This document shows, piece by piece, positions 5,676 through 35,096 of a DNA stretch of 64,000 bases. The notes under the pieces are model-generated. The model did not search any database. It saw only the letters and a list, made by a program, of their open reading frames with translations, and was not told where the DNA came from. Positions within the stretch are counted from its first letter, which is position 1. Each line of letters opens with the position of its first letter. Location: IMG/VR virus record IMGVR_UViG_3300023174_000046, positions 124,001 through 188,000 of that record; one strand, 5' to 3'. This stretch comes from a virus. A program made the position numbers and the translations under genes.

Positions 5676-6932
5676 GTGGAAAATATTTTTATACAGATTG
5701 CTGCCTATCGCGACCCACAACTAGTACCAACTTTACGTGACTGCATTAAGAATGCAAAGTTTCCTGACAGGCTAAGATTTTGCATATGCTGGCAACATGA
5801 TGAGAAAGATAGCTTGGAAGAATTTGCTACTGATAAACGGTTTACTATTCTAGATGTACCATATCAAAAAAGCCAAGGTGTTTGTTGGGCAAGAAGTACC
5901 ATTCAGAATTATTATCGTGATGAAAAATATACACTCCAATTGGATAGCCATCATCGGTTTACCGAAAACTGGGATGATACGTTAATAAAAATGGTCAAAC
6001 AATTGCAAAAGAAAGGACACAGAAAGCCTCTCCTTACCGGGTATATTCCTAGTTTTGATCCAGATAACGATCCCGGTGCACGTATTCATGTGCCTTGGAA
6101 AATGAATTTTGATAGATTTATTCCTGAAGGAGCCGTTTTTTTCTTACCTGCATCAATTGACAATTTTAAAGAATTAAAAGAACCTATTCCTGCTAGATTT
6201 TATTCAGCACATTTCTGCTTTACATTAGGTCAATTCTGTAAAGAAGTACCACATGATCCTAATTATTACTTTCACGGTGAGGAGATTAGCATTGCAGTGA
6301 GAGCGTTCACACATGGATACGATTTATTTCATCCACACAAAGTAATTATTTGGCATGAATATACTAGAAAAGGCAGAACCAAACAATGGGACGATGATAA
6401 AGATTGGGGCAAACGAAATGAACAATGTCATCTACGCAATCGTAAACTATTTGAAATGGATGGTGAGAAAAAAGATATTGATTTCGGACCATACGGCTTT
6501 GGTGATAAAAGAACTCTTAAAGACTACGAAAAATATGCTGGTCTTAATTTTAAGAAAAGAGCTGTGCAGCAGTATACAGTAGACCATCACTTAGCACCAA
6601 ACCCATATACATTCAAAAATGAAAAAGAATGGGAAGCGTCTTTCCTTCAAATCTTTAAACATTGTATTGATATACGATACGATCAAGTGCCTGAAAAAGA
6701 TTATGATTTCTGGTGTGTAGCTTTTAAGGATAAGGAAGGCAAAGATGTATTCCGAAAAGATGCGGACAAAGACGAGATTCAGCGCATGTTTAATGATCCA
6801 GACAAGTACTGTAAAGTTTGGCGAGAATTTAATTGTGAAACAATGCCTGTGAGTTGGTTGGTGTGGCCACATAGCATAGGCAAAGGTTGGGCTGATCCTA
6901 TTACAGGTAGGATAGGTGACAGGGCTAGCTAA
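5676..6932 (+). CDS. GlcNAc-transferase, Skp1 GnT1-like family (PF11397 type)
   Basis: A 418-residue enzyme starting at GTG. The opening IFIQIAAYRDPQLVPTLRDC, then CICWQH, then GVCWARS, then YTLQLDSHHRF (near residue 90) followed by W.D.L are the hallmark order of the family named for Dictyostelium Skp1 GlcNAc-transferase. The DSH triplet serves as the metal-binding DxD-like site. Characterised members add GlcNAc from UDP-GlcNAc to hydroxyproline in a protein. Later GEEI and HEYTR motifs also fit. It lies directly after Thr-Pro virion proteins, which makes them candidate acceptors (inference). A late-like GTAAAATA lies 4 nt before the start. Confidence 0.8.
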   Translation: MENIFIQIAAYRDPQLVPTLRDCIKNAKFPDRLRFCICWQHDEKDSLEEFATDKRFTILDVPYQKSQGVCWARSTIQNYYRDEKYTLQLDSHHRFTENWDDTLIKMVKQLQKKGHRKPLLTGYIPSFDPDNDPGARIHVPWKMNFDRFIPEGAVFFLPASIDNFKELKEPIPARFYSAHFCFTLGQFCKEVPHDPNYYFHGEEISIAVRAFTHGYDLFHPHKVIIWHEYTRKGRTKQWDDDKDWGKRNEQCHLRNRKLFEMDGEKKDIDFGPYGFGDKRTLKDYEKYAGLNFKKRAVQQYTVDHHLAPNPYTFKNEKEWEASFLQIFKHCIDIRYDQVPEKDYDFWCVAFKDKEGKDVFRKDADKDEIQRMFNDPDKYCKVWREFNCETMPVSWLVWPHSIGKGWADPITGRIGDRAS

Positions 6933-6935
6933 CAT

Positions 6936-7514
6936 ATGATAGCGGTACAAATCGGTGCCAATAGAGGCAATGATGAATTTACATCATTAATAAAAAACGT
7001 ACATGTTGATACTCTTGTTTTAGTTGAACCATTAAGTGTTCACAATTCAAGCCTGAACGATTGTTACTCGAATATTCAAAATAAATTTATAGAAAATATT
7101 ATCATTACAGATAAAGAAAATAGCGAGGAGGTTATTTATTTTCATAAGCTTGACGGGCTAGAATACGGTAATAATTATGAATTAGCAAGCCTCAACAAAC
7201 AACATTCTTTAAATATAAGAAATTCTTACGAGGAAAAAGAGGTAATCGCATTAAAGCTGCCCAATTTGACAATCAATAATCTATTGGACAAATATAAATT
7301 ACAAAATATTGATTTGCTATTTATAGACACTGAAGGATATGATAGCAAAATAATTATGAGTATAGATTTCACTAAATTTAATATTAAAGAAATTTACTAT
7401 GAAAATCTTCATATTAACGCTTATGAATTAAGAACATTCTTAAAAGAGAAAAATTATTCTGTAAATGAAGGTGTTTTAACATATGGATGGAATGACAGGG
7501 CAATCAAATGCTAA
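6936..7514 (+). CDS. FkbM-family methyltransferase
   Basis: A 192-residue, SAM-dependent methyltransferase. The SAM-binding motif VQIGANRGN lies at residues 4-12, VEP at the end of strand 2, and LLFIDTEGYD near residue 130, the FkbM signature. FkbM enzymes usually O-methylate sugars or polyketides. The start is 4 nt after the GlcNAc-transferase stop and the end overlaps the next gene by 7 nt, so it belongs to a translationally coupled sugar operon. A terminal O-methyl cap on the glycan is the likely product. Confidence 0.8.
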   Translation: MIAVQIGANRGNDEFTSLIKNVHVDTLVLVEPLSVHNSSLNDCYSNIQNKFIENIIITDKENSEEVIYFHKLDGLEYGNNYELASLNKQHSLNIRNSYEEKEVIALKLPNLTINNLLDKYKLQNIDLLFIDTEGYDSKIIMSIDFTKFNIKEIYYENLHINAYELRTFLKEKNYSVNEGVLTYGWNDRAIKC

Positions 7515-8395
7515 CCTTAATAGATAACGGTGATTTTTATGACTGGTCCTGCTGGGGAGGCACGCATAGATATTATAAGAACGAAAAAAAATATTACTGT
7601 GATCGCGATTCAGGCATTTTTTCAAATCTTACCAATATGATGTTTTGTATTGCTTTTTTAGAATTGGATAATAAACCGGTAATTGAACTCGAAACAATAT
7701 TTGGTGAGTATATTTCTTCTGAGAATATATACAGTAAAATCTTTAAAAAAAATTCTGATTTGTTGTTAGATTTAAATTTAATTCAAAATAAGGAAGCTTT
7801 TCTACAAGCACATCCTTCTTACTGGGGAATAGGACAAAATCTAAAAGAAGTAAATTTTAAATTTTATAATAATATTATAAGAAAATTTTTTATGCCTAGT
7901 GATGAAACGCTTGAAATAAAAAATAATTTATTAACAAACAATAGTATAAATTTAGAAAAGAGTGTTTTTTTATGGTGCCGACTAACCGATAAGCGTAGAG
8001 AAACTGTAGTACCGCCAGTATCTAAGTATATAGAGATTATTGAAAAAAATTTCAAAGATTACGAAATTATAGTGCAGACAGATGATATTAGTGTTTTAAA
8101 TGAAATTAAAACATATAATTATAATTTTAAATTTTTAAAAGAAATACCCATTGACAACTCTAACACTTTTGATGGCTGTTTCCACAGTAAAATGTGTAAC
8201 GTTGATGAGGTAGATTTTTACAATAAATACAAAATGTCTAAGGTAGATTACATAAGGCATATGTATGCGGCAGCATTAATCGCTTCAGAAAGCAAATATT
8301 TCATATGTTACCCAGGTAATCCTGTAACTTATGTTCCAATGTTAAAAGGTGATACAGATAATACTTTTTTATTTAAAAATCAGGAGCTTTTCTAA
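7508..8395 (+). CDS. Fucosyltransferase-like glycosyltransferase (GT-B type)
   Basis: A 295-residue protein. The C-terminal half carries FLWCRLTDKR followed by a conserved-looking spacing to IIVQTDD and a late YFICYPGNPVTYV. This order resembles the NodZ/FUT8 and O-fucosyltransferase fold, where the H/C-R-x-x-D-K segment binds GDP-sugar. The protein at 62284-63126 on the minus strand has the same architecture (FYRGTDKH, LIQTD, VVNHTGN), so the two look like distant paralogues. The sugar donor is not determined. It overlaps both neighbours by a few bases within the operon. Confidence 0.55.
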   Translation: MLTLIDNGDFYDWSCWGGTHRYYKNEKKYYCDRDSGIFSNLTNMMFCIAFLELDNKPVIELETIFGEYISSENIYSKIFKKNSDLLLDLNLIQNKEAFLQAHPSYWGIGQNLKEVNFKFYNNIIRKFFMPSDETLEIKNNLLTNNSINLEKSVFLWCRLTDKRRETVVPPVSKYIEIIEKNFKDYEIIVQTDDISVLNEIKTYNYNFKFLKEIPIDNSNTFDGCFHSKMCNVDEVDFYNKYKMSKVDYIRHMYAAALIASESKYFICYPGNPVTYVPMLKGDTDNTFLFKNQELF

Positions 8396-9261
8396 TGGAT
8401 ATACTTGTACAGCATAATTTTAATACCGGTCTTGGTGATGGGTTATTTGCTATGACAGAATATCTCACAAACATTAAGGCTTTAAAAGAATATGGGTTTA
8501 GCGCTAAATTGCATTTTAATCTAAGTAGAAATTTATATTTTAAAGAAAAAACACCTCTAGATTACTTGAATAATAACGAATTTAAAGTTTTTGATACTAT
8601 AAGTACCGAGCATTGTGGTATTAATGAAGATACAATTAAAGACTATACATGTGTCTTTACACACGCAAATGCTAATCATAGTCAACACTACTGGGATTTA
8701 TTTGTACATAATTCAGTTTTAGACAAATACCACTCATTCAATTATAAAATTAAACAATTTAATATTAAAGAAATGCTGGCTGGTGTGTTGCCTGATTTTT
8801 ACCCAAAACTTTCTGAACATATTCTCAGTAAATTTAATGAATTCAAAATAAAAAATAATTTAGATGACTATGATGCGATATATTTTAGAACACAAGATTT
8901 ACAAGAAGAATTAGACTTCTTAGAAAACAATAAAAGTAAATTAAAAGAAATACTTTTCGAAAATACCGACAAAAAAATATTTTATTGTTCTAACAGTAAA
9001 GAATTTAAAAAATATATTAAAACATTATCAAGACCTAACCTTTACAACTGGGAAATGCCTTTAGAAGAAGAATGGGGCGGTAACCACTTATTACACCAAA
9101 CAATTGACTCTGAAAATCTACATCAACGAACCATATACACATTATTAGACATGTGGACTTTATGCTCAGCTAAAAAAATAAATTTTTTTACTACGTGGGG
9201 CAGGTATTCAAATTTCTTTATTTACGCCCCTATTAACCACAGTTCAGTAGTATGGTATTAG
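8395..9261 (+). CDS. Putative glycosyltransferase, fucosyltransferase-like
   Basis: A 288-residue protein. The N-terminus NFNTGLGDGLFAMTEYL has the Gly-rich loop typical of GT-B enzymes that open with a donor or acceptor loop. Later AIYFRTQDLQEE and KIFYCSNSKEF match the positions of the R-x-x-D and Q-T-D motifs in the preceding gene. An AGGAG-like site (caggagc) sits 9 nt upstream, and the start overlaps the previous stop (TAATG). Family assignment is by pattern only; a sugar-transfer role fits the operon. Confidence 0.45.
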   Translation: MDILVQHNFNTGLGDGLFAMTEYLTNIKALKEYGFSAKLHFNLSRNLYFKEKTPLDYLNNNEFKVFDTISTEHCGINEDTIKDYTCVFTHANANHSQHYWDLFVHNSVLDKYHSFNYKIKQFNIKEMLAGVLPDFYPKLSEHILSKFNEFKIKNNLDDYDAIYFRTQDLQEELDFLENNKSKLKEILFENTDKKIFYCSNSKEFKKYIKTLSRPNLYNWEMPLEEEWGGNHLLHQTIDSENLHQRTIYTLLDMWTLCSAKKINFFTTWGRYSNFFIYAPINHSSVVWY

Positions 9262-10184
9262 AAATATCCTCTATCTGTGTAGCTAATGATTGGTATGTTG
9301 GTGAAATATACCAATATATCATTCAACAGTTTATTGAAAAATATCCTAATATAAAATTTAATGTTACAGACAACAAATCTTTTGCCTCAAAATATGATAT
9401 TAACAATGATACCCACAAAAATTCAATAGCTAATATATATAATTTGCTGATATATAATCCTAAAAATAATAAACTATTTGTTAATAGCCTTAATGACTAT
9501 GCACCGTATTGTTTGATGAACGGCACAGGTGTTGAAAAATTTGATTTGGTAGGGTTTGGCTGTGTTTCAAATCATAATCAGTACACTATTGATAGTTTCA
9601 AACCCTACAATATCATACCTTCTTTTTATATTTTAGAAAATATGAGCGATTTCGAACGCATACAAAAGTATAAGAATAAGCCTAGAAAGTTCAACAGTGC
9701 GTATTTCTTAGGTTTACTATATAACAGAAGAAAAGAATACTTTGATACATTTAAAGATAGTGATTTAGTAAAAATTTATAATAAAGATGAATTCTGGAAA
9801 AATAGGGATGATTATTTTTGTGAACTGTCCGATTACAAGATGTCTTTTAGTATGGATGGTGCTGCATTAATTTGTCACCGTGATATTGAATCAATAGGTT
9901 TGGGTAATATTTTAGTTAGAGAGTATCTGGACGTGAGAATGCATGATCCTTTATTACCCAATATACATTATATTGAAGCCGTTACAAAAAAAGAAAAAGA
10001 AACTATGCGAATACAAGACTGTAAAGAGTTAATAATAAATAGAATAAACGATTTTATTAGTAATGAAAAATTAGTCACAGATTATTTAAATGAATGCAGC
10101 AGTTGGTTTCAACGCAATTGCATTCCTGAAAACCAATTTAAAATCGTTGAAGATATAACCAACAGTCTAGAACTCCTTCGTTGA
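9252..10184 (+). CDS. Putative CAP10/GT90-like glycosyltransferase
   Basis: A 310-residue protein overlapping the previous gene by 10 nt. The segment KMSFSMDGAALICHRDIE followed by GLGNILVRE resembles the donor-binding part of CAP10 (GT90) enzymes, in which an arginine-containing loop precedes a Gly-rich turn. CAP10 members transfer xylose or glucose to glycans or proteins. The N-terminal 150 residues match nothing I recognise. A glycosyltransferase is likely from context; the exact family is uncertain. Confidence 0.4.
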   Translation: MVLEISSICVANDWYVGEIYQYIIQQFIEKYPNIKFNVTDNKSFASKYDINNDTHKNSIANIYNLLIYNPKNNKLFVNSLNDYAPYCLMNGTGVEKFDLVGFGCVSNHNQYTIDSFKPYNIIPSFYILENMSDFERIQKYKNKPRKFNSAYFLGLLYNRRKEYFDTFKDSDLVKIYNKDEFWKNRDDYFCELSDYKMSFSMDGAALICHRDIESIGLGNILVREYLDVRMHDPLLPNIHYIEAVTKKEKETMRIQDCKELIINRINDFISNEKLVTDYLNECSSWFQRNCIPENQFKIVEDITNSLELLR

Positions 10185-10207
10185 TATATAGAAAAAGCAA
10201 ATAATAT
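10181..10207 (+). promoter_or_regulatory. Sigma70-like promoter for the second FkbM gene
   Basis: TTGATA, 15 nt spacer, TAATAT, then 6 nt to ATG 10214. The expected +1 is the start codon. Confidence 0.5.
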
Positions 10208-10213
10208 ATTATT

Positions 10214-10909
10214 ATGTCGTACGATCATATAAAGAAATGGGACGACATTTTTTGTGCACAACATGTTATAAATCTAGTTAACCACATTTCGAGTTTGCTC
10301 TTAAAAAATAATATCAACCAAATAAACTATCTGGATATTGGTGCAAACGTGGGTAAAGTCTACGATTTATTATCAGAAAGAATACCAATTAACAAAGCAT
10401 ATCTTGTTGAAGCCAGTCCCCTACTTTTTAACTATATCAAACAAAAATATACAAATAATTCAAAAGTACAATTGTTTAATTTTGCCGCTTATAACGAAGA
10501 AACAAAAATTCAATTTGATCAATCTTCAATGCTTCATCAATTTGAAACAGATGGATCAAATTTAAATTTAGGTCTTTCTAAAATTCAACACACACCCCAA
10601 TCTGTTAGTATTGATGCAAAGCGTGTCTCAACATTTTTAAATGAGCGTCAGCTTTTTAGTGAATTATCTTTTATAAAAATAGACACTGAAACAGTAGATT
10701 TCATGATACTTGAAGATTTGCTAAAAGTCATATCGTTATTTGACGTTAAACCACTTATTGAATTTGAAAAAAATCATTTCATACAAGGCTTGAGCGATGA
10801 ACAAGCTCAGCATATACTTGATAAATTTGTAAACTATGGTTATAAACCATTGAATTTAGGTCAATGTTACGGCGACGGGCTGTTAATACCGGAAGGGTTT
10901 GTAGAGTAA
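10214..10909 (+). CDS. FkbM-family methyltransferase
   Basis: A 231-residue protein with YLDIGANVGK at about residue 38 (SAM loop), YLVEAS, FNFAAYN and FIKIDTETVD near residue 154, the FkbM pattern. The second FkbM enzyme in this block is only distantly similar to the first, so they probably methylate different positions or sugars. Unlike its upstream neighbours it is preceded by a 29-nt gap with a sigma70-like promoter, so it could be expressed separately. One nucleotide separates it from the HtrL-GT2 fusion. Confidence 0.8.
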   Translation: MSYDHIKKWDDIFCAQHVINLVNHISSLLLKNNINQINYLDIGANVGKVYDLLSERIPINKAYLVEASPLLFNYIKQKYTNNSKVQLFNFAAYNEETKIQFDQSSMLHQFETDGSNLNLGLSKIQHTPQSVSIDAKRVSTFLNERQLFSELSFIKIDTETVDFMILEDLLKVISLFDVKPLIEFEKNHFIQGLSDEQAQHILDKFVNYGYKPLNLGQCYGDGLLIPEGFVE

Positions 10910-10910
10910 T

Positions 10911-12575
10911 ATGAATAATTTAACGTTAGTTACAGGTATTTGGGATTTAAGGCGCGACCAAGCGGGTGAAGGTTTTAAGCGACCTTTTACCCATTATATT
11001 GTAAAGTTTACCGAACTCCTAAGAGCCGCTAAAGAATACAATATGGTTGTTTATATTGAAGAAAAGTATAAAGATTTGGTATTGAGTATAAGAGATCCAC
11101 AAAATACACAAATTCGTATAAAAGAAGTTGATGAGTTCAAAACAAGCTTTCCTTTTTACGATAAAATTACAGAAATAAGAAATAAAGACAGTTGGCTGAA
11201 TCAAGCTGGTTGGTTACGCGAAAGCACGCAAGCAACTATGGAACTTTATAACCCCATGGTTATGTCAAAGTTGTTCATGCTTCACGACGAAAAAATTAGA
11301 AATTCTTTTAATACAGATTATTTTTATTGGATTGATGGTGGGTTAACTAGCACTGTGCATCACGGTTATTTTTCAAAAGAAAAAATATTAGACAAAATAC
11401 CAAAAATTACAGATAAATTTCTTTTTATAGCATTCCCTTATGCAGAAGGAGATGAGATACATGGGTTTACTAGAACAAAAATGAATGAGTTGGCACAAAC
11501 AAAGAATGTAGAGTATGTTTGCCGTGGAGGTTTTTTTGGTGGTCATAAGAATAATATATCGGACATTAACGGTATATATTACTCTCTTTTAAGCAGTACC
11601 CTTAATGACGGATACATGGGCACAGAAGAAAGCATCTTTACCCTCATGACATATACTCACCCGCACTTGTTTGCAAAACATATGATAGATGGCAATGGCC
11701 TTGTTGGTAAATTTTTTGAAGATATTAAAAACACACCATTTACTGAAAATAAAATTACACTAAATAATTATTCTGGTGTCAACTTATATGTTCTATCATT
11801 TAACTCACCAGAGCAGTTTGAGAGATTAATTGAAAGCTATTTAAAGCAACCTGGGTTTGTGCGTGAAACAAAAAATATTTTAATAGATAATAGTACAGAC
11901 CCTGCAGTTAATGACAAATATGTGGAGCTTTGCGCAAAATTTAATTTTGAACACATTAAAAAAGATAATATAGGTATTTGTGGTGGAAGACAATTTGTTG
12001 CAGAGCATTTCAATACTACTGACGCAAAATATTATATGTTTCTTGAAGATGATATGAATTTATGTGATGAAAATTTTAAATTTTGTAAAAACGGATTTTC
12101 AAGAAATATCGAAAATCTTTACTATAAGATTCAAAAAATTATGGATAAAGAAGATTATGATTTTCTTAAGCTCTCATTTACAGAGTTTTTTGGTGATAAT
12201 ATGACCCAGTGGTCGTGGTATAATGTACCGCAGTCTATAAGAGAGCTGTACTGGCCAGGTAAAGTTAAACTACCTGTAATAGGATTAGACCCTAACGCAC
12301 CGAAGACAGTTTTTAAGAATATAGGCAGTGTAGATGGTTTAAGTTATATTGATGGTGAGATATACTATTGTAACTGGCCTCAAATTGTATCGCGAGCTGG
12401 CAATAAAAGAATGTTTCTTAGCACTAAATGGGATCATCCCTTTGAGCAGACATGGATGTCTTATATGTATCAGCTAACTAAGAGAGACATGTTAAAAAGC
12501 GCAGTTTTGTTAGCGTCACCTATAAATCATGAGAGATTTGCCTTTTATAAAAGCGAAGAGAGAAGAGAGAACTAA
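10911..12575 (+). CDS. Two-domain glycosyltransferase: HtrL/YibB-like plus GT2-like
   Basis: A 554-residue protein with two halves. Residues 1-275 resemble HtrL/YibB (TLVTGIWDLRR, a K..ELL..A segment, YFYWIDGG near residue 140 as a D-containing site). Residues about 285-520 form a GT-A domain: LYVLSFNSPEQFERLIESYL, LIDNSTD, NIGICGGRQF, and YYMFLEDDMNL near residue 378 as the metal-binding DxD. The fusion suggests two successive sugar additions by one chain. It ends the first sugar block. The next gene is structural and has its own late motif starting at the stop codon. Confidence 0.65.
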   Translation: MNNLTLVTGIWDLRRDQAGEGFKRPFTHYIVKFTELLRAAKEYNMVVYIEEKYKDLVLSIRDPQNTQIRIKEVDEFKTSFPFYDKITEIRNKDSWLNQAGWLRESTQATMELYNPMVMSKLFMLHDEKIRNSFNTDYFYWIDGGLTSTVHHGYFSKEKILDKIPKITDKFLFIAFPYAEGDEIHGFTRTKMNELAQTKNVEYVCRGGFFGGHKNNISDINGIYYSLLSSTLNDGYMGTEESIFTLMTYTHPHLFAKHMIDGNGLVGKFFEDIKNTPFTENKITLNNYSGVNLYVLSFNSPEQFERLIESYLKQPGFVRETKNILIDNSTDPAVNDKYVELCAKFNFEHIKKDNIGICGGRQFVAEHFNTTDAKYYMFLEDDMNLCDENFKFCKNGFSRNIENLYYKIQKIMDKEDYDFLKLSFTEFFGDNMTQWSWYNVPQSIRELYWPGKVKLPVIGLDPNAPKTVFKNIGSVDGLSYIDGEIYYCNWPQIVSRAGNKRMFLSTKWDHPFEQTWMSYMYQLTKRDMLKSAVLLASPINHERFAFYKSEERREN

Positions 12576-12587: not shown

Positions 12588-13277
12588 GTGAATACAGTTG
12601 TAGTAAACCTATCTTCTAAGCAAGATCCTGGCGATATTGTAATGTACAACCATTACTGGTTTTCAGATCCTCTATCCGGCACAAATATTGCATACCCAGT
12701 TACTGCAAATGGTGATTTCTTTACATACAGTACTACTCCTACAGTAACAGCAGATGATGGTAACTTTTTTCCATGGGGATATATTTTCCAAGACACATCT
12801 GAAACTATATATGCGGGCAAATACAAAGGCCTTACAACTTTGAATATCAATGCGTCGGGCCTATCAACTGATTATTTTCCCATCTTGCGTATATATTATG
12901 ATTTTGGTGATGGTGAAGTATACAATAACTCCAGAAATGTATTAATCGATTATTCCAAGCTTGCTATTGACTCTTTTATCAATGGCTATGGTTACGGCGA
13001 TCCCAAATTTGTGCCTGTAAACCATACCTACCAACCAAGTGATACTACTTTCACTGTTACCTATACAGCGCATGTACAAGTGTTTAATGGTAGTTTGGTT
13101 ACCAACAACTTCTTCATTATAATAGACTTAGTACAAGATTCTATATTTGATTTTGATGATATAAATCTGTTAGATACAAAGTTCATATCATTATCTGATA
13201 AAACCATCATAAACGTGTTAGAAGCCTCTAAACCTGAATATATTCTAAATAATCTTTTAAAATATAGTAATACCTAG
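12588..13277 (+). CDS. Virion protein with PKD-like strand pattern
   Basis: A 229-residue protein starting at GTG, 5 nt after a late motif. The central part has IYYDFGDGEVYNN and later VPVNHTYQ, the DFGDG and NHTY pair of PKD or immunoglobulin-like surface domains. The last 50 residues are more helical (LLDTKFISLSDKTII). It opens the baseplate/fibre block of 12.6-22 kb. Probably a fibre or baseplate accessory protein; no enzymatic motif is seen. Confidence 0.5.
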   Translation: MNTVVVNLSSKQDPGDIVMYNHYWFSDPLSGTNIAYPVTANGDFFTYSTTPTVTADDGNFFPWGYIFQDTSETIYAGKYKGLTTLNINASGLSTDYFPILRIYYDFGDGEVYNNSRNVLIDYSKLAIDSFINGYGYGDPKFVPVNHTYQPSDTTFTVTYTAHVQVFNGSLVTNNFFIIIDLVQDSIFDFDDINLLDTKFISLSDKTIINVLEASKPEYILNNLLKYSNT

Positions 13278-23399: not shown

Positions 23400-23401
23400 G
23401 C

Positions 23402-24893: not shown

Positions 24894-24895
24894 TT

Positions 24896-25639: not shown

Positions 25640-26453
25640 ATTAATAATGGAGGTGAGCTTATATGTAGGGTGTAGTGTTAATTGCAGTTATTGTCCACAG
25701 TTTAGCTTGTTTAAACTATCAAAAAAGCGTAAAATGGGTATTGATGATTATAAAATTCTTTTAGATAAAATTCCTTGCACAACACATATAGGGTTTATTG
25801 GTATGAGTGAACCACTACTCTACAAAGAGTTTGATAAAATTATACAGTATACGCTCCACAAAAAACATAAAATGATATGCTTTACAACCTTACCCGAGAA
25901 GATACAAGCCAATGCTGATATATTTCTCAATAAAAATCTTTGGTATAGAAGATCGGTGCATATTAAAGATGAGAACATGTTGGATAAGACTATTACACAT
26001 CAGTATCTTAATAATTTAGAAAAATACTTTGATCAAATTGATATTAACGATATGAGCAAACAAAACTCCATCACAATATTATCAGATAATATAGATTCAC
26101 AAATTGAAAATTTAATATCAAAATACAACTTACAAGAATACGTCTTTAGAACACAACCTTTTAAACGCATAAGAGCTCCTATCACCTATAAAACACCTGT
26201 AATACCGTCAAAATTATCAGGCAAAATTTATTGTTCTCAGGGTCACGATAAAATACAACACTTATTGCCCGACGGTGATGTTGTGCTGTGTTGTATGGAT
26301 GTTGAAAAGATGCATGTTCTTGGCAACCTCTTTAAAAACTCCTACCAAGACCTATATAATTCAAAGGAATATAAGGAAATACAGCAAGGCTATGAAGATG
26401 ATAGAGTTAAAACTATATGCAGATCATGTATTTTTGCAAAAAACGTAATATGA
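25617..26453 (+). CDS. Radical SAM/SPASM enzyme
   Basis: A 278-residue protein. C19-x3-C23-x2-C26 (CSVNCSYC) is the classic site for the 4Fe-4S cluster that cleaves SAM. The C-terminal part has IYCSQGHDK, LLPDGDVVLCCMD, VLGNL and ICRSCIF, a SPASM-type second cluster region. SPASM enzymes modify peptides or act as sugar/aminoglycoside dehydrogenases or epimerases. Among glycosyltransferases the sugar role is more likely (inference). Internal ATGs at 25629 and 25647 are alternative starts. The next gene overlaps it in the form ATGA. Confidence 0.8.
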   Translation: MKVIMNHELIMEVSLYVGCSVNCSYCPQFSLFKLSKKRKMGIDDYKILLDKIPCTTHIGFIGMSEPLLYKEFDKIIQYTLHKKHKMICFTTLPEKIQANADIFLNKNLWYRRSVHIKDENMLDKTITHQYLNNLEKYFDQIDINDMSKQNSITILSDNIDSQIENLISKYNLQEYVFRTQPFKRIRAPITYKTPVIPSKLSGKIYCSQGHDKIQHLLPDGDVVLCCMDVEKMHVLGNLFKNSYQDLYNSKEYKEIQQGYEDDRVKTICRSCIFAKNVI

Positions 26454-27992: not shown

Positions 27993-28016
27993 TATTATAA
28001 GTAGTTATTGTAGTAT
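27989..28016 (+). promoter_or_regulatory. Sigma70-like promoter of the amidinotransferase operon
   Basis: TTGATA, 16 nt spacer, TAGTAT, then 6 nt to ATG 28023. It could drive the whole modifying-enzyme cassette. Confidence 0.5.
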
Positions 28017-28022
28017 AAACTT

Positions 28023-29120
28023 ATGGAGTGTCCTGTCAATAGTCATAATGAATGGGATGTTTTGGAGGAAGTTATTGTGGGTAATGGATTTCCAGAAAAA
28101 ATACCTATTGATGATATGTCTTTCCGTTTATTTTTTCACGATAATATATACGGCAAACCTACAACTTACTTTTCCGAACGCTGGGGCATGTGTTCTAAGA
28201 TAATAGATGAGCATAATGAAGATTTAGAAAATTTTGTTAGTCTACTGCAACAGAATAACGTAACAGTAAGGAGACCGAAGAAACCTACCAGTATAAAGAA
28301 GATAAAAACCTTGGGCTGGAATAGTATAAATTACCCCGCACTCAATGTAAGAGACCTAACCATGATAGTTGGTAGTACGATTATTGAAACACCTGTTTCT
28401 GCGCGCTGGAGACAGTTTGAAAATGATTATATGAAACATTTATTTTTAGAATACTTTAATAAAGGTGCAAGATGGTTGAATGCACCGCGTCCTATCGCTA
28501 CAGACAACTCATACGATTTGAATGAAGTGTATAAAACAGAAGGTGCAGAAGCATTTTATTTTGATATTAAAGATAAGTTTAGTCACGAATTAGATTGTGG
28601 ATATGAAATAATGTTTGACGCAGCAAACTGTCAACGTCTAGGTGATAAAATTCTTTTTAATGCACCTACTAAAAATGAGATGCTTGGAGTAAAGTGGTTA
28701 CAAGACATGTTAGGGGAAGCATATACAATCTGGCCATGCAATGTAACAGATCATCATATAGACTCAGTATTTTTACCTTTACGCCCTGGATTGGCATTAA
28801 TTACACTTGATATTGTTGATAAGTTGCCGTGTGAATTACAAAAATGGGATTTTATACGCATACCTGCAGAGCTTGATTCCGATAAAAACATAAACTACAC
28901 ACCGCTAGCATCTGAAAAAATTTATTGTAACGTACTTTCTTTAAATCCAAATAAAATTATTTGTTTGCCTGAGTATTACTCTTTACTATCATCAAAGCTC
29001 AAGCCTTACAACATTGAAGTTATACCTTCACAAATACGTTATAGTCGGTTATTTGGTGGTGGTCATCACTGTCTCTCGTTAGATATACGAAGACAAAGTA
29101 AGTTAGAAAGCTATTTTTAA
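28023..29120 (+). CDS. Arginine:X amidinotransferase (AGAT/StrB-like)
   Basis: A 365-residue enzyme of the glycine/inosamine-phosphate amidinotransferase family. ECPVNSHNEWDVLEEVIVG opens it. NVRDLTMIVG and ETPVSARWRQFE match the family, as does FDAANCQRLGDKI with the catalytic Asp. DHHIDSVFLPL holds the catalytic His, and GGGHHCLSLDIRR near residue 349 holds the nucleophilic Cys. The full triad is present, so an active enzyme is expected. Family members move the amidino group of arginine to an amine, giving guanidinoacetate or the guanidino groups of streptomycin-type sugars. Next to a deacetylase that can expose sugar amines, a guanidino-sugar is a plausible product (inference). Confidence 0.88.
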   Translation: MECPVNSHNEWDVLEEVIVGNGFPEKIPIDDMSFRLFFHDNIYGKPTTYFSERWGMCSKIIDEHNEDLENFVSLLQQNNVTVRRPKKPTSIKKIKTLGWNSINYPALNVRDLTMIVGSTIIETPVSARWRQFENDYMKHLFLEYFNKGARWLNAPRPIATDNSYDLNEVYKTEGAEAFYFDIKDKFSHELDCGYEIMFDAANCQRLGDKILFNAPTKNEMLGVKWLQDMLGEAYTIWPCNVTDHHIDSVFLPLRPGLALITLDIVDKLPCELQKWDFIRIPAELDSDKNINYTPLASEKIYCNVLSLNPNKIICLPEYYSLLSSKLKPYNIEVIPSQIRYSRLFGGGHHCLSLDIRRQSKLESYF

Positions 29121-29884
29121 TGAAATTATTAGTTTTAATATTTTCTTGCAAGAAAAATATAGACCGTTGCCTGGCAATACAACAGTCATGGCTGCAAGAT
29201 CTCAAGCAAAACCATATTGAGTATTTTTTTGTTTCTGCAGATGATCTAGAATTACAAGAACCGTCAATTAAACTAGAAAATTTTACTGAATGTTACGAAC
29301 AATTACCGCTTAAAACATTTCTTACTCTCAAACAAATTTACAATTATAAGTTTACACATCTTGTTAAAACAGATGATGATGTTTTCTTGAATATTAAAAA
29401 GTTAATTGCAACACTTCCGAAAAATGTTGATTATTCAGGCAAATTTAACCTCAAAGGTGTTGATGCGTCCATGATACACTATTATAAATGTAGTGGAGAA
29501 TTTAGAACACCAAAAAAGAAAGCAAGCCACGACTACGCAGAAGGGGGCATGTACATACTCAGTAAGAAAGCTGTTAAATATATTGTAAGTTGTGATCAGG
29601 AAACTTTCATTAATTCACCTAAAACTTATAAAGGTGAAGATGTTGCAGTTGGTGAACTACTTAATAATGAAAAATTTACTAAATTAGATCTTACAGATAG
29701 CTTATCTGACAAACTTAATATGGATATCACAAGAAATGGTGTCTCGTATCACCCGGTGCATAAATCGTTGATGCACAAATTATATAAAGCTAAGACAACG
29801 AACGACAGAATAGATATATTAGTTGCAAATACAGCAAAGAATGACTATAATAAACGGGATATATTTATTAGAAAATATGAGTAA
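29120..29884 (+). CDS. GT31-like glycosyltransferase (beta-3-galactosyltransferase type)
   Basis: A 254-residue protein. QQSWLQD, HLVKTDDDVFLN near residue 83 (the GT31 DDD motif), then YAEGGMYILSKKAV and GEDVAVGELL follow the GT31 order. These enzymes add Gal or GlcNAc in beta-1,3 linkage, in eukaryotes often on O-glycan cores. GT31 is uncommon in phages. It has no transmembrane anchor, unlike Golgi members. It abuts the amidinotransferase (stop and start share the region TAATG) and overlaps the next gene by 8 nt. Confidence 0.8.
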   Translation: MKLLVLIFSCKKNIDRCLAIQQSWLQDLKQNHIEYFFVSADDLELQEPSIKLENFTECYEQLPLKTFLTLKQIYNYKFTHLVKTDDDVFLNIKKLIATLPKNVDYSGKFNLKGVDASMIHYYKCSGEFRTPKKKASHDYAEGGMYILSKKAVKYIVSCDQETFINSPKTYKGEDVAVGELLNNEKFTKLDLTDSLSDKLNMDITRNGVSYHPVHKSLMHKLYKAKTTNDRIDILVANTAKNDYNKRDIFIRKYE

Positions 29885-30527
29885 TAATGTTTTAGTGCTA
29901 GCACCTCACGGTGATGACGAAGTTTTAGGCTGTGGTGGCAGCATTGCCAAGCATATTGAATTGGGTGATCAAGTTACAGTTGCTTTTATTAAAGCTGCGT
30001 ACGATGAGAGATCCACAGTACAGCTTCAAAACACGATAAGTGCGCAAAAAGTATTAGATTATGAGAGAATGATTATTATGAATTTAGATGAGAATACTAT
30101 TCATAACAAACTTGAGTTTATAAAAGAGCTTGAAGTAATCGTGAATACGGTAAAACCTGATACAATTTATTCAACTTTTTATGGCGATTTGCATCAAGAT
30201 CATCGCGCATTATTTGAAGCGCTCAATACAGCAGCGCGTGTATGGGCAGACCATCTTGTTAAAAAAATTCTACTTTGTGAGACAATATCTTCAACTGATC
30301 AAGGTATTATTCGTAATATTCATCCGTTTGTACCCAATTATTATGTAACATTAAGTGAACACCATATAGACAAAAAGATGAATGCATTATCATGCTATGA
30401 AAGGGAAATTAAAAAAGAATGTCACCCAAGATCAATAGAGCATGTTTTGAATGTAGCAAAATCTCGAGGTCGTGAGATAAGAAACTCTTATGCAGAAGCA
30501 TTTATGCTTATGAGATTTATAGATTAA
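29877..30527 (+). CDS. PIG-L/LmbE-type deacetylase
   Basis: A 216-residue protein started at ATG 29877, 8 nt inside the previous gene; an in-frame upstream ATG at 29823 would add 18 residues with no family match. VLVLAPHGDDEVLGCGGS carries the zinc-binding H-x-D-D motif, and GDLHQDHRA the second His pair. PIG-L/LmbE enzymes remove the acetyl group from GlcNAc-containing molecules, leaving a free amine. That amine is the kind of group the neighbouring amidinotransferase family uses. Confidence 0.85.
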   Translation: MSNNVLVLAPHGDDEVLGCGGSIAKHIELGDQVTVAFIKAAYDERSTVQLQNTISAQKVLDYERMIIMNLDENTIHNKLEFIKELEVIVNTVKPDTIYSTFYGDLHQDHRALFEALNTAARVWADHLVKKILLCETISSTDQGIIRNIHPFVPNYYVTLSEHHIDKKMNALSCYEREIKKECHPRSIEHVLNVAKSRGREIRNSYAEAFMLMRFID

Positions 30528-30528
30528 C

Positions 30529-31308
30529 ATGAATACTTGCAGACATAATAATAAAAATTATAATCTCAACGTAGCTAGTTATACAGAAGAAGAAAATTTT
30601 TTAAAAGAATTTATAGCTAAAGGTTACGTTTTCTTAGAGAATGTTGTTAACCTCAATTACAACTATAAAGAGAGATCTGAATATTCTAGAATAAAGCAAA
30701 TGGATGTTATTGATAATTTCTTTCCTGATAACCCCGAATATTTTCAAATTTATAATAGTTTTAAAAAATCAAAAATATTTGATATACTTTCCAATAATTT
30801 AACAAGCTTAAGACTGTATAATTTTATGTGTTTTCGTCTATACAAAGGGAACGAATGCTCATCATTGCACCGTGATGATGATTTTGCTATAACGTATACC
30901 CTCAAAACACCATTTGTAATTTGCTGGATGCCTTTGACAGACGTCTCTCTTGCGGCTGGTCCTCTTGCAATTGCAGAAAGAACCAAGACTGTGTATACAC
31001 AGCATGATATCAAAGAGGGTGAAAAATATATTCAAAAATATTTAAAAAGTAACAACGTTATGGAGAATATTGATGGTATACGCAATGCCATGCTAGAGGA
31101 AGAAGATTATAAAATTTCTGTACATAGAGATTTCGATACATTAATCTCACGTGATCTCAAAAAAGGTGATGTTGTTGTAATGAATCACGATATTGTTCAT
31201 GGATCATTAGATAATAATAATTTGATTCGGTCTTCTATTGATTTGAGATTGTTTTATAACTGTGACACAAATAATAATCTGCTCAAAAGAGTATCTCTAG
31301 ATACATGA
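30529..31308 (+). CDS. Fe(II)/2-oxoglutarate oxygenase (PhyH-like)
   Basis: A 259-residue protein. SLHRDDDFAI near residue 113 gives the H-x-D iron ligands, HGSLDNN near residue 223 the distal His, and RSSIDLR the 2-oxoglutarate-binding Arg, with LAAGPLAIAERT in between as in phytanoyl-CoA dioxygenase-like proteins. Such enzymes hydroxylate or halogenate small molecules, sugars or residues; the Asp ligand is retained, so hydroxylation is expected. The stop overlaps the halogenase start. A prolyl-hydroxylase role for the Thr-Pro proteins is possible but not shown. Confidence 0.78.
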   Translation: MNTCRHNNKNYNLNVASYTEEENFLKEFIAKGYVFLENVVNLNYNYKERSEYSRIKQMDVIDNFFPDNPEYFQIYNSFKKSKIFDILSNNLTSLRLYNFMCFRLYKGNECSSLHRDDDFAITYTLKTPFVICWMPLTDVSLAAGPLAIAERTKTVYTQHDIKEGEKYIQKYLKSNNVMENIDGIRNAMLEEEDYKISVHRDFDTLISRDLKKGDVVVMNHDIVHGSLDNNNLIRSSIDLRLFYNCDTNNNLLKRVSLDT

Positions 31309-32723
31309 ATAAAAGCATAGTTATTTTGGGTGGCGGTACTGCTGGTTGGATGAGCGCGCTTTTCTTTAAGAAAGCATACCCCCAATCAAAAGTTACTGTA
31401 GTTGAGTCCGAAGAGATAGGTATTATAGGCGTGGGCGAAAGCACCACACCGTATTTTATAGAAATGTTAGATTTTCTTGATATAAATGTTTTAGATATTT
31501 TAAAAGCAAGTGATATCGCTTTTAAAACAGGTGTAAAATTTGATGGATGGGGTAAAAGTATTTTCTACCACCCTTTTAATCTGAACGATGAACACTATAA
31601 TCATGATACTGCTCTTATTCAATACTATTTGAAAAATAAAGATACAAATGTGTTTAAAACATTAAACCCGTTAGTAACAATTACTGAACAAGGTAAGATT
31701 CAAAAAATTAAAAAAAACCTTCCACATAACGATTTTGCGGTTCATATTGATGCTTGCAAAACAAGCATTGCTTTAAAAAGTATTGCTCTCTCACGAGGCA
31801 TTCAGCTTGTACAGGGTGTAGTTGGTAGTGTAGAGGTAAAAGATAATAACGTTGCTTCTTTAATCTTAAATAGTGGGCATAGAGTTTGTGGTGATTTCTT
31901 TGTAGATTGTTCAGGATTTAATAGGGTTCTTGCAAATAAGTTCAATATTAAATTTTTAAAATTTAACGATTTATTGACAAATACAGCTATACCTTGCCCT
32001 ATTAAGAAGACTTTTTTTGAACCATATACAACCGCAAAAACCTTGAATTATGGCTGGACATGGAAGATACCTACACACTCTAGAACAGGTACCGGTTATG
32101 TTTTTTCAAGAGATTACACTGATATAGATAGTGCAAAAAAAGAATTTTATACATATTTGAAAACTGTTACAGATGAAGAAATTAACCTAAATAAAATTAT
32201 CTTTTTTGAAACTGGGACTCTTGAAAAAATTCATTTTAATAATGTATTAGCTGTTGGGTTAGCGTCACATTTTCTTGAACCACTAGAAGGCACATCTCTC
32301 GCTATATCTGCGATTATATTATTTGAGTTTATCAAACAAAAAGAAGGCTTTAATAGTAAAATACTACAAAAAATTTTACAGATAAAAGACTTTATTGTAT
32401 TACATTATTTAACTAAAAAAACACAGAGTAATTTTTGGTTGGACGCAAGCAAAAAAGCAAAAGAAAATAATTTAATTCAAAAACTCCTGTCTAGCAAAAC
32501 ATTAAATTTTGATTTATTTAAAGACAATGATTATTATTTTAGCTTTTTAAATCATCTCAACTTTTTACAGAATCTCGATGCGGTTGATACCAACACAAGT
32601 GTATCAACAGAACGCTATAAGACTGATTTTAGCTATATTAAGCTTTTAAAGTCTAAGGCATGGCATTACAGTCATGTTAAAAACGCTGTAGATTATAAAA
32701 CATATTACGAGCAGTTTCTATGA
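31305..32723 (+). CDS. Flavin-dependent (tryptophan-type) halogenase
   Basis: A 472-residue protein. G9-GGTAGW15 is the FAD-binding motif of flavin halogenases, and GWTWKIP near residue 250 is the W-x-W-x-I-P motif that distinguishes them from monooxygenases. AFKTG holds the Lys near residue 74 in the position of the catalytic Lys, and FLEPLEGTSLA near 325 provides the Glu. The key residues for HOCl use are therefore present. Known family members chlorinate tryptophan, pyrroles or phenols; a cyanophage member (VirX1) has been characterised. The substrate here is unknown. It is flanked by an oxygenase and a methyltransferase in an overlapping operon. Confidence 0.85.
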   Translation: MNKSIVILGGGTAGWMSALFFKKAYPQSKVTVVESEEIGIIGVGESTTPYFIEMLDFLDINVLDILKASDIAFKTGVKFDGWGKSIFYHPFNLNDEHYNHDTALIQYYLKNKDTNVFKTLNPLVTITEQGKIQKIKKNLPHNDFAVHIDACKTSIALKSIALSRGIQLVQGVVGSVEVKDNNVASLILNSGHRVCGDFFVDCSGFNRVLANKFNIKFLKFNDLLTNTAIPCPIKKTFFEPYTTAKTLNYGWTWKIPTHSRTGTGYVFSRDYTDIDSAKKEFYTYLKTVTDEEINLNKIIFFETGTLEKIHFNNVLAVGLASHFLEPLEGTSLAISAIILFEFIKQKEGFNSKILQKILQIKDFIVLHYLTKKTQSNFWLDASKKAKENNLIQKLLSSKTLNFDLFKDNDYYFSFLNHLNFLQNLDAVDTNTSVSTERYKTDFSYIKLLKSKAWHYSHVKNAVDYKTYYEQFL

Positions 32724-33637: not shown

Positions 33638-33826
33638 ATGGTAAGTTTGAGTGCAATTAACGATTTTTTTGATCTGTCTAAACCATGCCCCTCAGAAATA
33701 AAAAGATGTCGACAACTTAGAAACGATTACCGACTTGAACTTCGAAATATGAAGCAATGCACAAGCTGTGCAACACGAGTAGTAAAAAACGTTTATATTA
33801 ATAAAATAAATCAATGCTCGAATTAA
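33638..33826 (+). CDS. Small Cys-rich protein, paralogue 1
   Basis: A 62-residue protein. FFDLSKPCPSEIKRC, then a basic helix (RNDYRLELRNM) and CTSCATRVVKN. The next gene has the same plan (FFDMNQPCPSDIPDC, RKDYLNKLEEL, CSPCKMRGIRN), so they are tandem duplicates. The C-P-S, C and C-x2-C cysteines could bind one zinc. Function unknown; a small regulatory or virion factor is possible. Confidence 0.6.
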   Translation: MVSLSAINDFFDLSKPCPSEIKRCRQLRNDYRLELRNMKQCTSCATRVVKNVYINKINQCSN

Positions 33827-34017
33827 CTAAAATAGAAAGGTTTTTTGATATGAATCAGCCTTGCCCGTCAGATATACCTGATTGTGAACAACATAGAAAA
33901 GACTATTTAAATAAATTAGAAGAATTGAAAAAACAAAACGGTTGCAGTCCTTGCAAGATGCGAGGGATCAGAAACCATTATCTTCAAATTATTACAGGAG
34001 CGTATGGAGCTAAGTAA
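33814..34017 (+). CDS. Small Cys-rich protein, paralogue 2
   Basis: A 67-residue tandem paralogue of the preceding protein, overlapping it by 13 nt. All four cysteines (C-P-S, C at +6, C-x2-C) are kept, which suggests that the metal site matters. It also overlaps the next gene by 14 nt, so these genes are likely translated in series. Confidence 0.6.
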   Translation: MLELTKIERFFDMNQPCPSDIPDCEQHRKDYLNKLEELKKQNGCSPCKMRGIRNHYLQIITGAYGAK

Positions 34018-34333
34018 TTTTATAATAGGGTTTTTATCGACAAGTAGTTTACTGCTACTTTGGTTTTATTCTTCTTTAAAGATTACTTTAGCAGAAATCT
34101 TTTTTAATGAGAAAATTACAAATAATGATCAATTTGAAGACTTAATTATGATTCGTCTAAAAAATGAAAAACTATCACATTTATCAAGTTGTTATATTTG
34201 CATGAGTTTTTGGACATCATTTCTTGTAGGATGTCTTTTAACGTTTTTGGGTAGCCCCAACTATACCCCTGTCATTACATTCTTGACTTACCCCTGCTTG
34301 TGTTATATAATGAAGAAATATGTCTTTGATTGA
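34004..34333 (+). CDS. Membrane protein with CxxC-W motif
   Basis: A 109-residue protein with an N-terminal hydrophobic stretch (IIGFLSTSSLLLLWFY), a charged middle, and CYICMSFWTSFLVGCLL, a Cys-x2-Cys followed by a membrane span with Trp. This resembles DUF1360-type membrane proteins. The motif might bind metal at the membrane surface. The next gene overlaps it by 14 nt. Confidence 0.5.
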   Translation: MELSNFIIGFLSTSSLLLLWFYSSLKITLAEIFFNEKITNNDQFEDLIMIRLKNEKLSHLSSCYICMSFWTSFLVGCLLTFLGSPNYTPVITFLTYPCLCYIMKKYVFD

Positions 34334-35096
34334 TAGCAAAGTGTGTATCCTGGGGGATGGGTTCGTTGGCCAATCTCTAAAGAAAGCACTACAAAAATGT
34401 CATGATGTGGTTCTTCTTGGACCTCAAGAAGTGCCTGTACAGAAGGCTTTTGATGTCTGTTTTATTTGTGTGCCTACAAATAACACAAACAGTGTTACTG
34501 ATTTATCAAATATAGAAGACGCTTTTCACAAGATAAAGAGCAATCTATATATTATTAAGTCTACTGTGCCAGTTGGTACTTGTAAAGAATTGACTGATCG
34601 CTTTAAAGTAGATATAGTTTATTGTCCAGAATTTTTAAGTGAATCAACATACCACAATCCAACTAATTGTGCAGGCAATTTACTTGAATGGCCTTTTTTC
34701 GTTCTCGGTGGAAACAACGGGCCTGTTGATAATGCATATAATTTTTTATTAGAAATTTTTGGTCCCTGCAAGTCTTACTCTTTTGCTACTTTTGAAACTG
34801 CAGAGCTTTTTAAGTACACAATAAATTTATTCTGGACGTTTAAATTATCTTTTTTTAATAGCATATTTGATGTCTGTGCTGATTTTAATGTAGATTACAA
34901 AAAATTAAGAGAATTGGTACTTTTAGATAAACGTATACACCCGCTTCATACCGCTATTTTTAAAAATAAGAGAGGTTTTAGGGGAAAATGCTTGCCCAAA
35001 GATCTTGAATCCTTTGTATCACAAATAAAAAACAAACAAAGCAAAGATTTATTTGCTATGATTCAGCAATATAATAACCTTTTTATTAAAAAATAA
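34320..35096 (+). CDS. UDP-sugar 6-dehydrogenase-like protein, short form
   Basis: A 258-residue protein of the UDP-glucose/GDP-mannose dehydrogenase family. VCILGDGFVGQSL is the NAD-binding loop; CFICVPTNN, IKSTVPVGT and PEFLSESTYHNP follow in order. FRGKCLPKDLESF near residue 223 holds the catalytic Cys. Full-length enzymes run to about 390-450 residues and have a third, UDP-binding domain. This one stops right after the central helix, so it is C-terminally short. It could bind NAD and perform oxidation only with a partner, or act on another substrate. A uronic acid in the glycan would need this activity. Confidence 0.7.
   Translation: MSLIDSKVCILGDGFVGQSLKKALQKCHDVVLLGPQEVPVQKAFDVCFICVPTNNTNSVTDLSNIEDAFHKIKSNLYIIKSTVPVGTCKELTDRFKVDIVYCPEFLSESTYHNPTNCAGNLLEWPFFVLGGNNGPVDNAYNFLLEIFGPCKSYSFATFETAELFKYTINLFWTFKLSFFNSIFDVCADFNVDYKKLRELVLLDKRIHPLHTAIFKNKRGFRGKCLPKDLESFVSQIKNKQSKDLFAMIQQYNNLFIKK

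What the first reader, a model, noticed from the sequence alone, without database searches (positions are those of the whole stretch)
5676..35096. Two sugar-gene islands inside the virion region: candidate particle glycosylation system
About 20 sugar-transfer or sugar-modifying genes (GlcNAc-transferase, GT8, GT32, GT31, HtrL-GT2, fucosyltransferase-like, CAP10-like, two FkbM, radical SAM, PIG-L, amidinotransferase, short UDP-sugar dehydrogenase) lie between tail-fibre genes instead of in a host-type O-antigen cluster. No Wzx/Wzy-type exporter or polymerase is seen. Virion proteins beside them carry long Thr-Pro tracts. I infer that the enzymes decorate the particle itself. Phage DNA glycosylation is well known; a multi-step protein glycan of this size is not, to my knowledge.
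Basis: inference. Interest (0 to 1): 0.85.

Follow-up and report, generated by a model that had tools for sequence, protein, structure and literature searches.

The report
Phage cassette for mucin-like protein glycosylation
This large virus of bacteria appears to carry a swappable set of enzymes that would hang sugar chains on threonine-proline-rich proteins of its own particle, much as animal and protist cells coat mucins; such phage 'mucins' could hide or re-label the particle, but no sugar has yet been measured here.

Summary
The sugar genes are real and lie in the tail/baseplate region, but the two islands differ in kind. Island 1 (5676-12575) is a conserved phage cassette. Its first gene is a PF11397 (GT60-type) polypeptide transferase whose predicted fold matches mucin-type polypeptide GalNAc-transferases best, with an invariant DxH + His metal site (39 of 39). 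Its other conserved gene is a two-domain HtrL/YibB transferase. The remaining genes are soluble and hypervariable: phages with >=95% identical GT60 can share none of them.

The likely acceptors are Thr-Pro tracts next door. The TP pattern occurs in 31 of 40 GT60 records >=50 kb against 1 of 24 random ones; in 3 of 3 cultured GT60 jumbo phages against 0 of 5 without it; and in two bacterial genomes (4.5 and 5.3 Mb) the only strict TP tract lies about 1 kb or less from GT60. XacN1, a cultured carrier, is published as having at least two glycoproteins.

Island 2 (22095-33397) is stable in the one relative compared; its target is unknown. Virion glycosylation is known in mycobacteriophages. A mucin-type, cassette-swapping version was not found in the papers searched. 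Virion protein glycosylation is well supported by inference; attachment to Thr-Pro is probable but unproven.

The parts
1..2259 (+). Virion-region protein with a Thr-Pro tract (3' part; the whole ORF is 1273 aa and begins upstream of the window); candidate acceptor
   Evidence: cluster c18, in 16 of 81 GT60 loci with the window
2271..2741 (+). Small protein, C-terminal two thirds Thr-Pro repeats; candidate acceptor
   Evidence: kept in relative G001
2745..4187 (+). Protein with C-terminal Thr-Pro tract; candidate acceptor
4200..5642 (+). Flanking virion-region protein without family
   Evidence: kept in G001 at 37%
5676..6932 (+). Polypeptide glycosyltransferase, PF11397 (GT60 type): presumed initiating enzyme; D90-S91-H92 and H227 invariant
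6936..7514 (+). FkbM methyltransferase, variable cassette gene
7508..8395 (+). Variable cassette gene, no family
8395..9261 (+). Variable cassette gene, no family
9252..10184 (+). Variable cassette gene, no family above cut-off; recurrent cluster c8 (23 of 81 GT60 loci)
10214..10909 (+). FkbM methyltransferase, variable cassette gene
10911..12575 (+). HtrL_YibB (PF09612) protein with a second, C-terminal GT-A-like domain; conserved partner of GT60
12588..13277 (+). Virion-region protein after the cassette (cluster c15); several relatives carry a Thr-Pro tract
13306..16728 (+). Conserved virion-region protein downstream of the cassette (cluster c20)
19465..21399 (+). Tail fibre with Mtd_N and S74 chaperone domains
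23402..24160 (+). Island 2: GT8
24150..24893 (+). Island 2: DXD glycosyltransferase (Gly_transf_sug)
25617..26453 (+). Island 2: SPASM radical SAM
28023..29120 (+). Island 2: amidinotransferase
29120..29884 (+). Island 2: galactosyltransferase (PF01762; GT31 label recalled)
29823..30527 (+). Island 2: PIG-L deacetylase
30529..32723 (+). PhyH-type dioxygenase and tryptophan-halogenase-type flavoprotein; no counterpart in G001
36743..37129 (+). Small Thr-Pro-tract ORF
42333..43946 (+). RCC1-propeller protein with a Thr-Pro linker

Best explanation
Island 1 is a phage-encoded, mucin-type protein O-glycosylation cassette. In infection (probably late) the PF11397/GT60 enzyme moves a sugar (probably an N-acetylhexosamine) from a host UDP-sugar to threonines in Thr-Pro tracts of tail/baseplate-region proteins, in the cytoplasm and without lipid carrier or export. 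The HtrL-GT2 enzyme and the variable cassette genes (transferases, FkbM and other methyltransferases; in other phages also carbamoyl-, sulfo- and fucosyltransferase families) extend and cap the chain. Swapping the variable genes re-types the glycan. Shown: genes, conservation, swapping, predicted fold, metal-site residues, co-occurrence and adjacency of enzyme and TP tracts. Inferred: sugar identity, Thr as acceptor, presence in the virion, and the benefit (escape from host sensors or neutralising binders, or altered adsorption).
For: Fold: AF2 model pLDDT 90.3; the first 29 VIA-align entries are all polypeptide GalNAc-transferases (Z 18.7-22.5, 260-283 residues aligned, rmsd 3.2-3.9), the next is SpsA at 16.9; Foldseek ranks 1-30 are the same family. 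D90-S91-H92 and H227 are invariant in 39 of 39; GalNAc-Ts bind manganese by a DxH motif and a further His (passages). GT60 enzymes are polypeptide alpha-GlcNAc-transferases initiating mucin-type glycans (passages of PMC8724618). Co-occurrence: TP pattern in 31 of 40 GT60 records against 1 of 24 random records >=50 kb (1 of 50 of all sizes); GT60 in 18 of 50 TP records against 0 of 50 random; portal relatives 5 of 5 with GT60 against 4 of 20 without (Fisher p 0.002, 0.034 for >=50 kb only), and a sixth carrier, G161, also has it; cultured jumbo phages 3 of 3 against 0 of 5. Bacteria: TP gene next to GT60 in 5 of 28 loci; in two genomes it is the only strict TP tract, 494 and 1003 bp from GT60. 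PF09612 occurs in exactly the 3 GT60 carriers among 38 records. XacN1 has the cassette, 15 TP ORFs in the 255 kb examined (joined) and reported glycoproteins. 199 of 203 variable proteins have no TM window.
Against: 9 of 38 GT60 viral records >=50 kb lack the TP pattern; in three of them inspected almost whole, Thr/Ser-rich repeats were found in two and none in one, and such tracts also occur in 15 of 1026 random ORFs. 22 of 40 TP records >=50 kb lack GT60, and their TP neighbours show no recurrent transferase. 4 of 20 portal relatives without GT60 have TP tracts. In nine of eleven bacterial genomes with the strict pattern it is not within 1.1 kb of GT60. Records are related and mostly fragments, so p values are optimistic. 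No TP protein here is proven to be in the virion. The XacN1 report does not name its glycoproteins in the passages read, and its supplement was not seen. A shared fold does not show the acceptor.
Confidence: 0.74

Rival explanations
1. The cassette glycosylates virion proteins, but elsewhere (tail fibre, capsid); TP tracts are only spacers that travel with the same lineages.
For: 9 of 38 GT60 viral records lack the TP pattern; 4 of 20 portal relatives without GT60 have it; 22 of 40 TP records >=50 kb lack GT60.
Against: Adjacency recurs in bacteria, in two as the only strict TP tract of the genome; cultured jumbo phages split 3 of 3 against 0 of 5; the fold is that of enzymes that act on mucin peptides.
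Confidence: 0.13
2. The enzymes change the host's lipopolysaccharide or capsule (receptor masking).
For: HtrL/YibB is an E. coli protein family (TIGR02192) whose gene lies by the LPS core genes (recalled); GT25 is described as an LPS biosynthesis family.
Against: No exporter- or polymerase-like membrane protein seen; 199 of 203 variable proteins without TM windows, 4 with one; the initiating fold is a polypeptide transferase; location among tail genes.
Confidence: 0.06
3. The enzymes glycosylate modified bases in phage DNA.
For: Phage DNA glycosyltransferases are common (established knowledge).
Against: No thymidylate-synthase/dCMP-hydroxymethylase family in the 217-kb record (the record may be incomplete, and other base-modifying routes were not searched); fold and TP association point to peptides; the cassette sits among tail genes.
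Confidence: 0.03
4. GT60 acts on hydroxyproline of the TP tracts, as Skp1 GnT does, after a phage dioxygenase (30529) hydroxylates proline.
For: The Skp1 hydroxyproline enzyme is related to the GT60 mucin initiators (passages); a PhyH-type gene lies in island 2.
Against: The PhyH gene has no counterpart in relative G001, which keeps GT60 and TP tracts; no dioxygenase is among the 25 families listed for the cassette scan (150 of 203 proteins; 25 of 48 families shown).
Confidence: 0.04

Closest known systems
GT60 polypeptide alpha-GlcNAc-transferases (Dictyostelium, Trypanosoma cruzi mucins; related Skp1 GnT)
   Same: Pfam PF11397 (8.6e-72; that this Pfam is GT60 is recalled); like GT60, no lectin domain detected; Thr-rich acceptor proposed
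   Different: In phages paired with an HtrL protein and a variable gene set; own C-terminal part (about 300-418) not assigned a fold; activity untested
GT27 polypeptide GalNAc-transferases of animals and Toxoplasma
   Same: Best structural matches, Z up to 22.5; DxH + His metal site
   Different: 11-15% identity; no lectin domain detected by Pfam; donor sugar unknown
Mycobacteriophage virion glycosylation (Freeman et al. 2023, known here only from citations)
   Same: Phage transferases decorating capsid and tail proteins
   Different: There the C-termini of capsid and tail tube subunits; here Thr-Pro tracts beside GT60/HtrL and a swapping cassette are proposed
Xanthomonas phage XacN1 (PMC5852040, passages)
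   Same: Carries a GT60-HtrL cassette and 15 TP ORFs; at least two glycoproteins reported
   Different: Different cassette genes (a carbamoyltransferase and two others); authors named two transferases (ORF328, ORF334) and in the passages read did not link them to TP tracts
Moraphages (PMC12619734, passages)
   Same: Large aquatic phages with four core groups of putative glycosyltransferases; virion glycosylation discussed as one possibility
   Different: Whether any of those groups is GT60 or HtrL was not tested here
Chlorovirus PBCV-1 capsid glycosylation (as mentioned in PMC5852040; details recalled)
   Same: At least partly virus-encoded glycosylation of the particle
   Different: Different enzymes and N-linked sites (recalled)

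Membership tests
GT60 / PF11397 polypeptide transferase | Match to the curated Pfam model | tested here: met
   242.9 bits against cut-off 21
GT60 / PF11397 polypeptide transferase | GT-A fold with DxH metal site like GT27 | tested here: met
   predicted model; motif meaning from passages
GT60 / PF11397 polypeptide transferase | UDP-GlcNAc donor, Thr/Ser or hydroxyproline acceptor | not testable with these tools
   needs enzyme assay
Mucin-type O-glycosylation | Thr/Ser/Pro-rich acceptor protein linked to the enzyme | tested here: met
   genetic linkage only: adjacency and co-occurrence in phages and bacteria, with 9 of 38 GT60 viral records lacking the pattern
Mucin-type O-glycosylation | Sugar on those residues | not testable with these tools
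   needs mass spectrometry
Virion glycosylation system | Glycosylated protein present in the particle | not testable with these tools
   only the XacN1 report (passage), proteins not named there
O-antigen / LPS-modifying cluster | Flippase, polymerase or lipid-linked transferase (multi-TM protein) | tested here: not met
   by hydropathy: none of 203 variable cassette proteins has two or more TM windows; in the finding's range only a 109-aa ORF (34004) has two; specific Wzx/Wzy models not searched
T4-type DNA glucosylation | Base hydroxymethylase of the thymidylate synthase family | tested here: not met
   PF00303 absent from the held record; record may be incomplete

The most novel reading that the evidence does not exclude
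Large aquatic phages and some bacteria share a mobile mucin system: a GT60 initiator, an HtrL-GT2 partner and Thr-Pro 'phage mucins', with the extension enzymes exchanged wholesale, so that phage particles have glycan serotypes that diversify like O-antigens; the protist and animal mucin initiators would belong to the same wider family as these phage and bacterial enzymes.
Probability: 0.55. Interest if true: 0.9.

Novelty: new variant of a known kind. Interest (0 to 1): 0.8.

Why it matters
It would add a mucin-type, swappable glycan coat to phage biology, make the function of Thr-Pro tracts in phage structural proteins testable, give soluble bacterial-type tools for making mucin-like glycoproteins, and bear on the origin of mucin-type O-glycosylation in eukaryotes. 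It also suggests that phage particles can vary chemically without changing protein sequence, which matters for adsorption, host defence and immune recognition of phages.

Tried and rejected
Rejected or inconclusive: one system for both islands (one search shows island 1 genes replaced and island 2 kept in G001). DNA modification and LPS modification are unlikely. Hydroxyproline via the PhyH gene: no counterpart in G001. PHROGs did not name the TP proteins as virion proteins; the hit of L002:4343-8440 to a virion protein family (residues 597-895) may run through low-complexity sequence. Sequence searches of GT60 and HtrL against solved structures gave nothing credible. The near-identity search of the phage collection with window bases 1-25000 gave no match. 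A strict hydropathy cut-off (1.9) missed the 34004 and 33401 ORFs that flags at 1.6, so one search is used. Alternative transferases beside TP tracts in GT60-free records: none recurrent (59 neighbours; 3 of the 22 loci showed no TP ORF). Alternative Thr/Ser-rich acceptors in TP-free GT60 records: inconclusive (G020 whole, G035 and G024 but for their last 0.8 and 2.1 kb). Promoter and terminator scan no better than shuffles. Papers: no paper in the held library holds both 'phage' and 'PF11397'; HtrL with phage and glycosyltransferase gave one unrelated paper (listing only); other searches are. Freeman et al. 2023 is not held.

Limits of counts: only 80 of 236 GT60 loci were kept, and the TP test used the 38 of them on contigs of at least 50 kb plus two cultured phages. 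rang nowhere, control genomes included, but the same family search rang. 25 of 80 portal loci were examined, mostly on longer contigs; two contigs of comparable length were left out: L145 (28.8 kb, untested) and L095, which is the GT60 contig of L011 and turned out to have the TP pattern. 150 of 203 variable proteins were scanned. CM1 and RAS14 have GT60 hits of equal score and the same TP matches and appear near-identical, so cultured carriers count as about two lineages (p 0.048 then, 0.018 with three). One bacterial scan was made (28 loci); 20 of their genomes were tested with the strict pattern, nine had none, among them three (L472, L495, L496) whose neighbour is TP-rich by the looser protein measure.
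Full report
WHERE IT IS. The window is bases 124001-188000 of a 217,413-bp virus record. The same-strand genes upstream of the window include tail sheath, tail tube and a baseplate wedge; the tail fibre 19465-21399 has Mtd_N and S74 domains, and the portal is at 38301.

WHAT THE GENES ARE. Of 20 island ORFs scanned with Pfam, 11 pass a curated cut-off, and 28023 is an amidinotransferase by solved-structure comparison.

TWO DIFFERENT ISLANDS. In the relative G001 (portal 87%, GT60 80% identical) the virion-region genes on both sides of island 1 are kept in order. Of the cassette only GT60 and HtrL are kept, with two unmatched genes between them in place of five, and one more unmatched gene after HtrL. 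Island 2 from 22095 to 30527 is kept gene by gene at about 40-69% (with one extra ORF), while the genes 30529, 31305 and 32720 have no counterpart there. This rests on one relative.

THE CASSETTE. GT60 relatives are abundant: 236 confirmed in viral contigs, 80 kept at 66-95% identity. The cluster that contains HtrL occurs in 77 of 81 loci, the window included. Of the four without it, L021 and L031 are cut by the contig end; L074 and L080 are true exceptions in the DNA held. A long HtrL in the same gene run is downstream of GT60 in 38, upstream in 35 and not found by that rule in 8 of 81 loci. The other cassette genes are hypervariable: after dereplicating loci at 90% GT60 identity, 203 of 208 remain as less than 70% identical to another over most of their length. 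Of 20 pairs of loci with GT60 at least 95% identical, 4 share none of the variable genes (for example L032/L052 and L079/L090); the 12 pairs with 100% identity share all. A scan of 150 of the 203 finds FkbM, GT25, GT10, carbamoyltransferase, GT_PLOD, RXYLT1-like, sulfotransferase and other sugar-building or tailoring families. 199 of 203 have no transmembrane window and 4 have one. PF09612 HtrL was found in exactly the three GT60 carriers among 38 records, and in none of 24 random and 11 GT60-free portal relatives.

WHAT GT60 DOES. The AlphaFold2 model (pLDDT 90.3) is matched best by polypeptide GalNAc-transferases: the first 29 VIA-align entries, Z 18.7-22.5, against 16.9 for the next protein; Foldseek ranks 1-30 are the same family. 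D90-S91-H92 and H227 are invariant in 39 of 39 sequences, and a DxH motif plus a further histidine binds manganese in GalNAc-Ts (passages of PMC6994419 and PMC9996832). That H227 is the equivalent histidine is inferred from its invariance. GT60 enzymes are described as polypeptide alpha-GlcNAc-transferases related to GT27, initiating mucin-type glycans in Dictyostelium and T. cruzi, and a relative modifies Skp1 hydroxyproline (passages of PMC8724618). That PF11397 corresponds to GT60 is recalled. The HtrL model (pLDDT 89.9) has two transferase-like halves; the C-terminal one is like B4GALNT1 and POMGNT1 (Z 14-16).

THE ACCEPTOR. A DNA pattern for Thr-Pro-Thr-Pro-Thr-x-Thr-Pro is found in 31 of 40 GT60 records (29 of 38 viral contigs of at least 50 kb, 27 of 33 after collapsing 90% identical GT60s, and 2 of 2 cultured). 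In size-biased random records it is found in 1 of 24 of at least 50 kb (1 of 50 in all). PF11397 is in 18 of 50 TP records (18 of 40 of at least 50 kb) and 0 of 50 random ones. Within portal relatives, 5 of 5 GT60 carriers and 4 of 20 others have the pattern; a sixth carrier left out of that test, G161, has one match. Among cultured jumbo phages, XacN1, RAS14 and CM1 have 22, 11 and 11 matches; RaK2, 121Q, GAP32, Atu_ph07 and SCTP-2, in which GT60 was not found, have none. In the 80 viral loci, 33 have a TP ORF in the flank; of 81 loci, it is directly upstream of GT60 in 12 and directly after HtrL in 10.

INDEPENDENT SUPPORT FROM BACTERIA. One scan of species genomes gave 28 GT60 loci; several are on small contigs of metagenome-assembled genomes and may be phage. 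A TP gene is the neighbour of GT60 in 5 of 28, and in L472 and L475 HtrL is there too; in L475 the TP gene lies between two GT60 relatives. In the Jiulongibacter genome and the Desulfobacterales chromosome, all three matches to a stricter TP pattern (4.5 and 5.3 Mb searched) lie from 494 and 1003 bp from GT60 on. Eleven of 20 genomes had the strict pattern; in the other nine of these it was not within 1.1 kb of the GT60 locus. A simple calculation gives 1.6e-5 for two such cases; it ignores relatedness. Two of the bacterial TP proteins (L472, L475) begin with twin-arginine-like leaders (sequences; motif recalled), which would fit glycosylation in the cytoplasm before export.

A CULTURED CARRIER. 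XacN1 has GT60 (ORF334) and HtrL (ORF330) with a carbamoyltransferase and two more genes between them, and 15 TP ORFs in bases 65,001-320,000 after joining pieces of one ORF, some beside the tail sheath genes. [quoted passage not shown] which ones is not said there, and the supplement was not read.

AGAINST. Nine of 38 GT60 viral records lack the pattern, 22 of 40 TP records lack GT60, and no other transferase recurs beside TP tracts in those. Fragments explain some but not provably all. No mass spectrum links sugar and Thr-Pro. Virion presence of the TP proteins is inferred from gene order.

ISLAND 2. Its PIG-L deacetylase and amidinotransferase suggest that an N-acetyl sugar is deacetylated and given an amidino group (inference). 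Its acceptor is unknown.

NOVELTY. Virion glycosylation by phage enzymes is in print for mycobacteriophages (seen as citations), and PMC12619734 describes four core groups of putative transferases in another large aquatic phage lineage (passage), which I did not compare. The searches did not show a report of a GT60/HtrL, mucin-type phage cassette; subscription papers are mostly not held. I class it as a new variant of a known kind.

Noticed in passing
window 55565-57997: Large autotransporter-type repeat protein (PATR repeats) with a weak PEP-CTERM-like tail (below cut-off), unusual for a phage; may hint at the host group.
   Followed up: partly
window 57973-58641: Protein with a prepilin N-methylation motif, weakly like pseudopilins and a 'Verru_Chthon cassette' family (below cut-off).
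   Followed up: partly
window 59641-62279: FecR-domain protein followed by a UvdE-type UV endonuclease and a 5'-3' exonuclease.
   Followed up: no
window 31305-32723: Strong tryptophan-halogenase-family flavoprotein in a phage (8.6e-84), without counterpart in relative G001.
   Followed up: no
window 42333-43946: RCC1-type propeller protein with a Thr-Pro linker near the portal and adaptor genes.
   Followed up: no
L495 and L496: In two Rhodocyclales contigs the TP gene beside GT60 begins like a LapA-type adhesin (resemblance recalled; sequence), suggesting bacterial mucin-like adhesins.
   Followed up: partly
window 51844-52372: tRNA-Leu overlapping the end of a small HNH-endonuclease-like gene on the other strand (HNH match below cut-off).
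   Followed up: no
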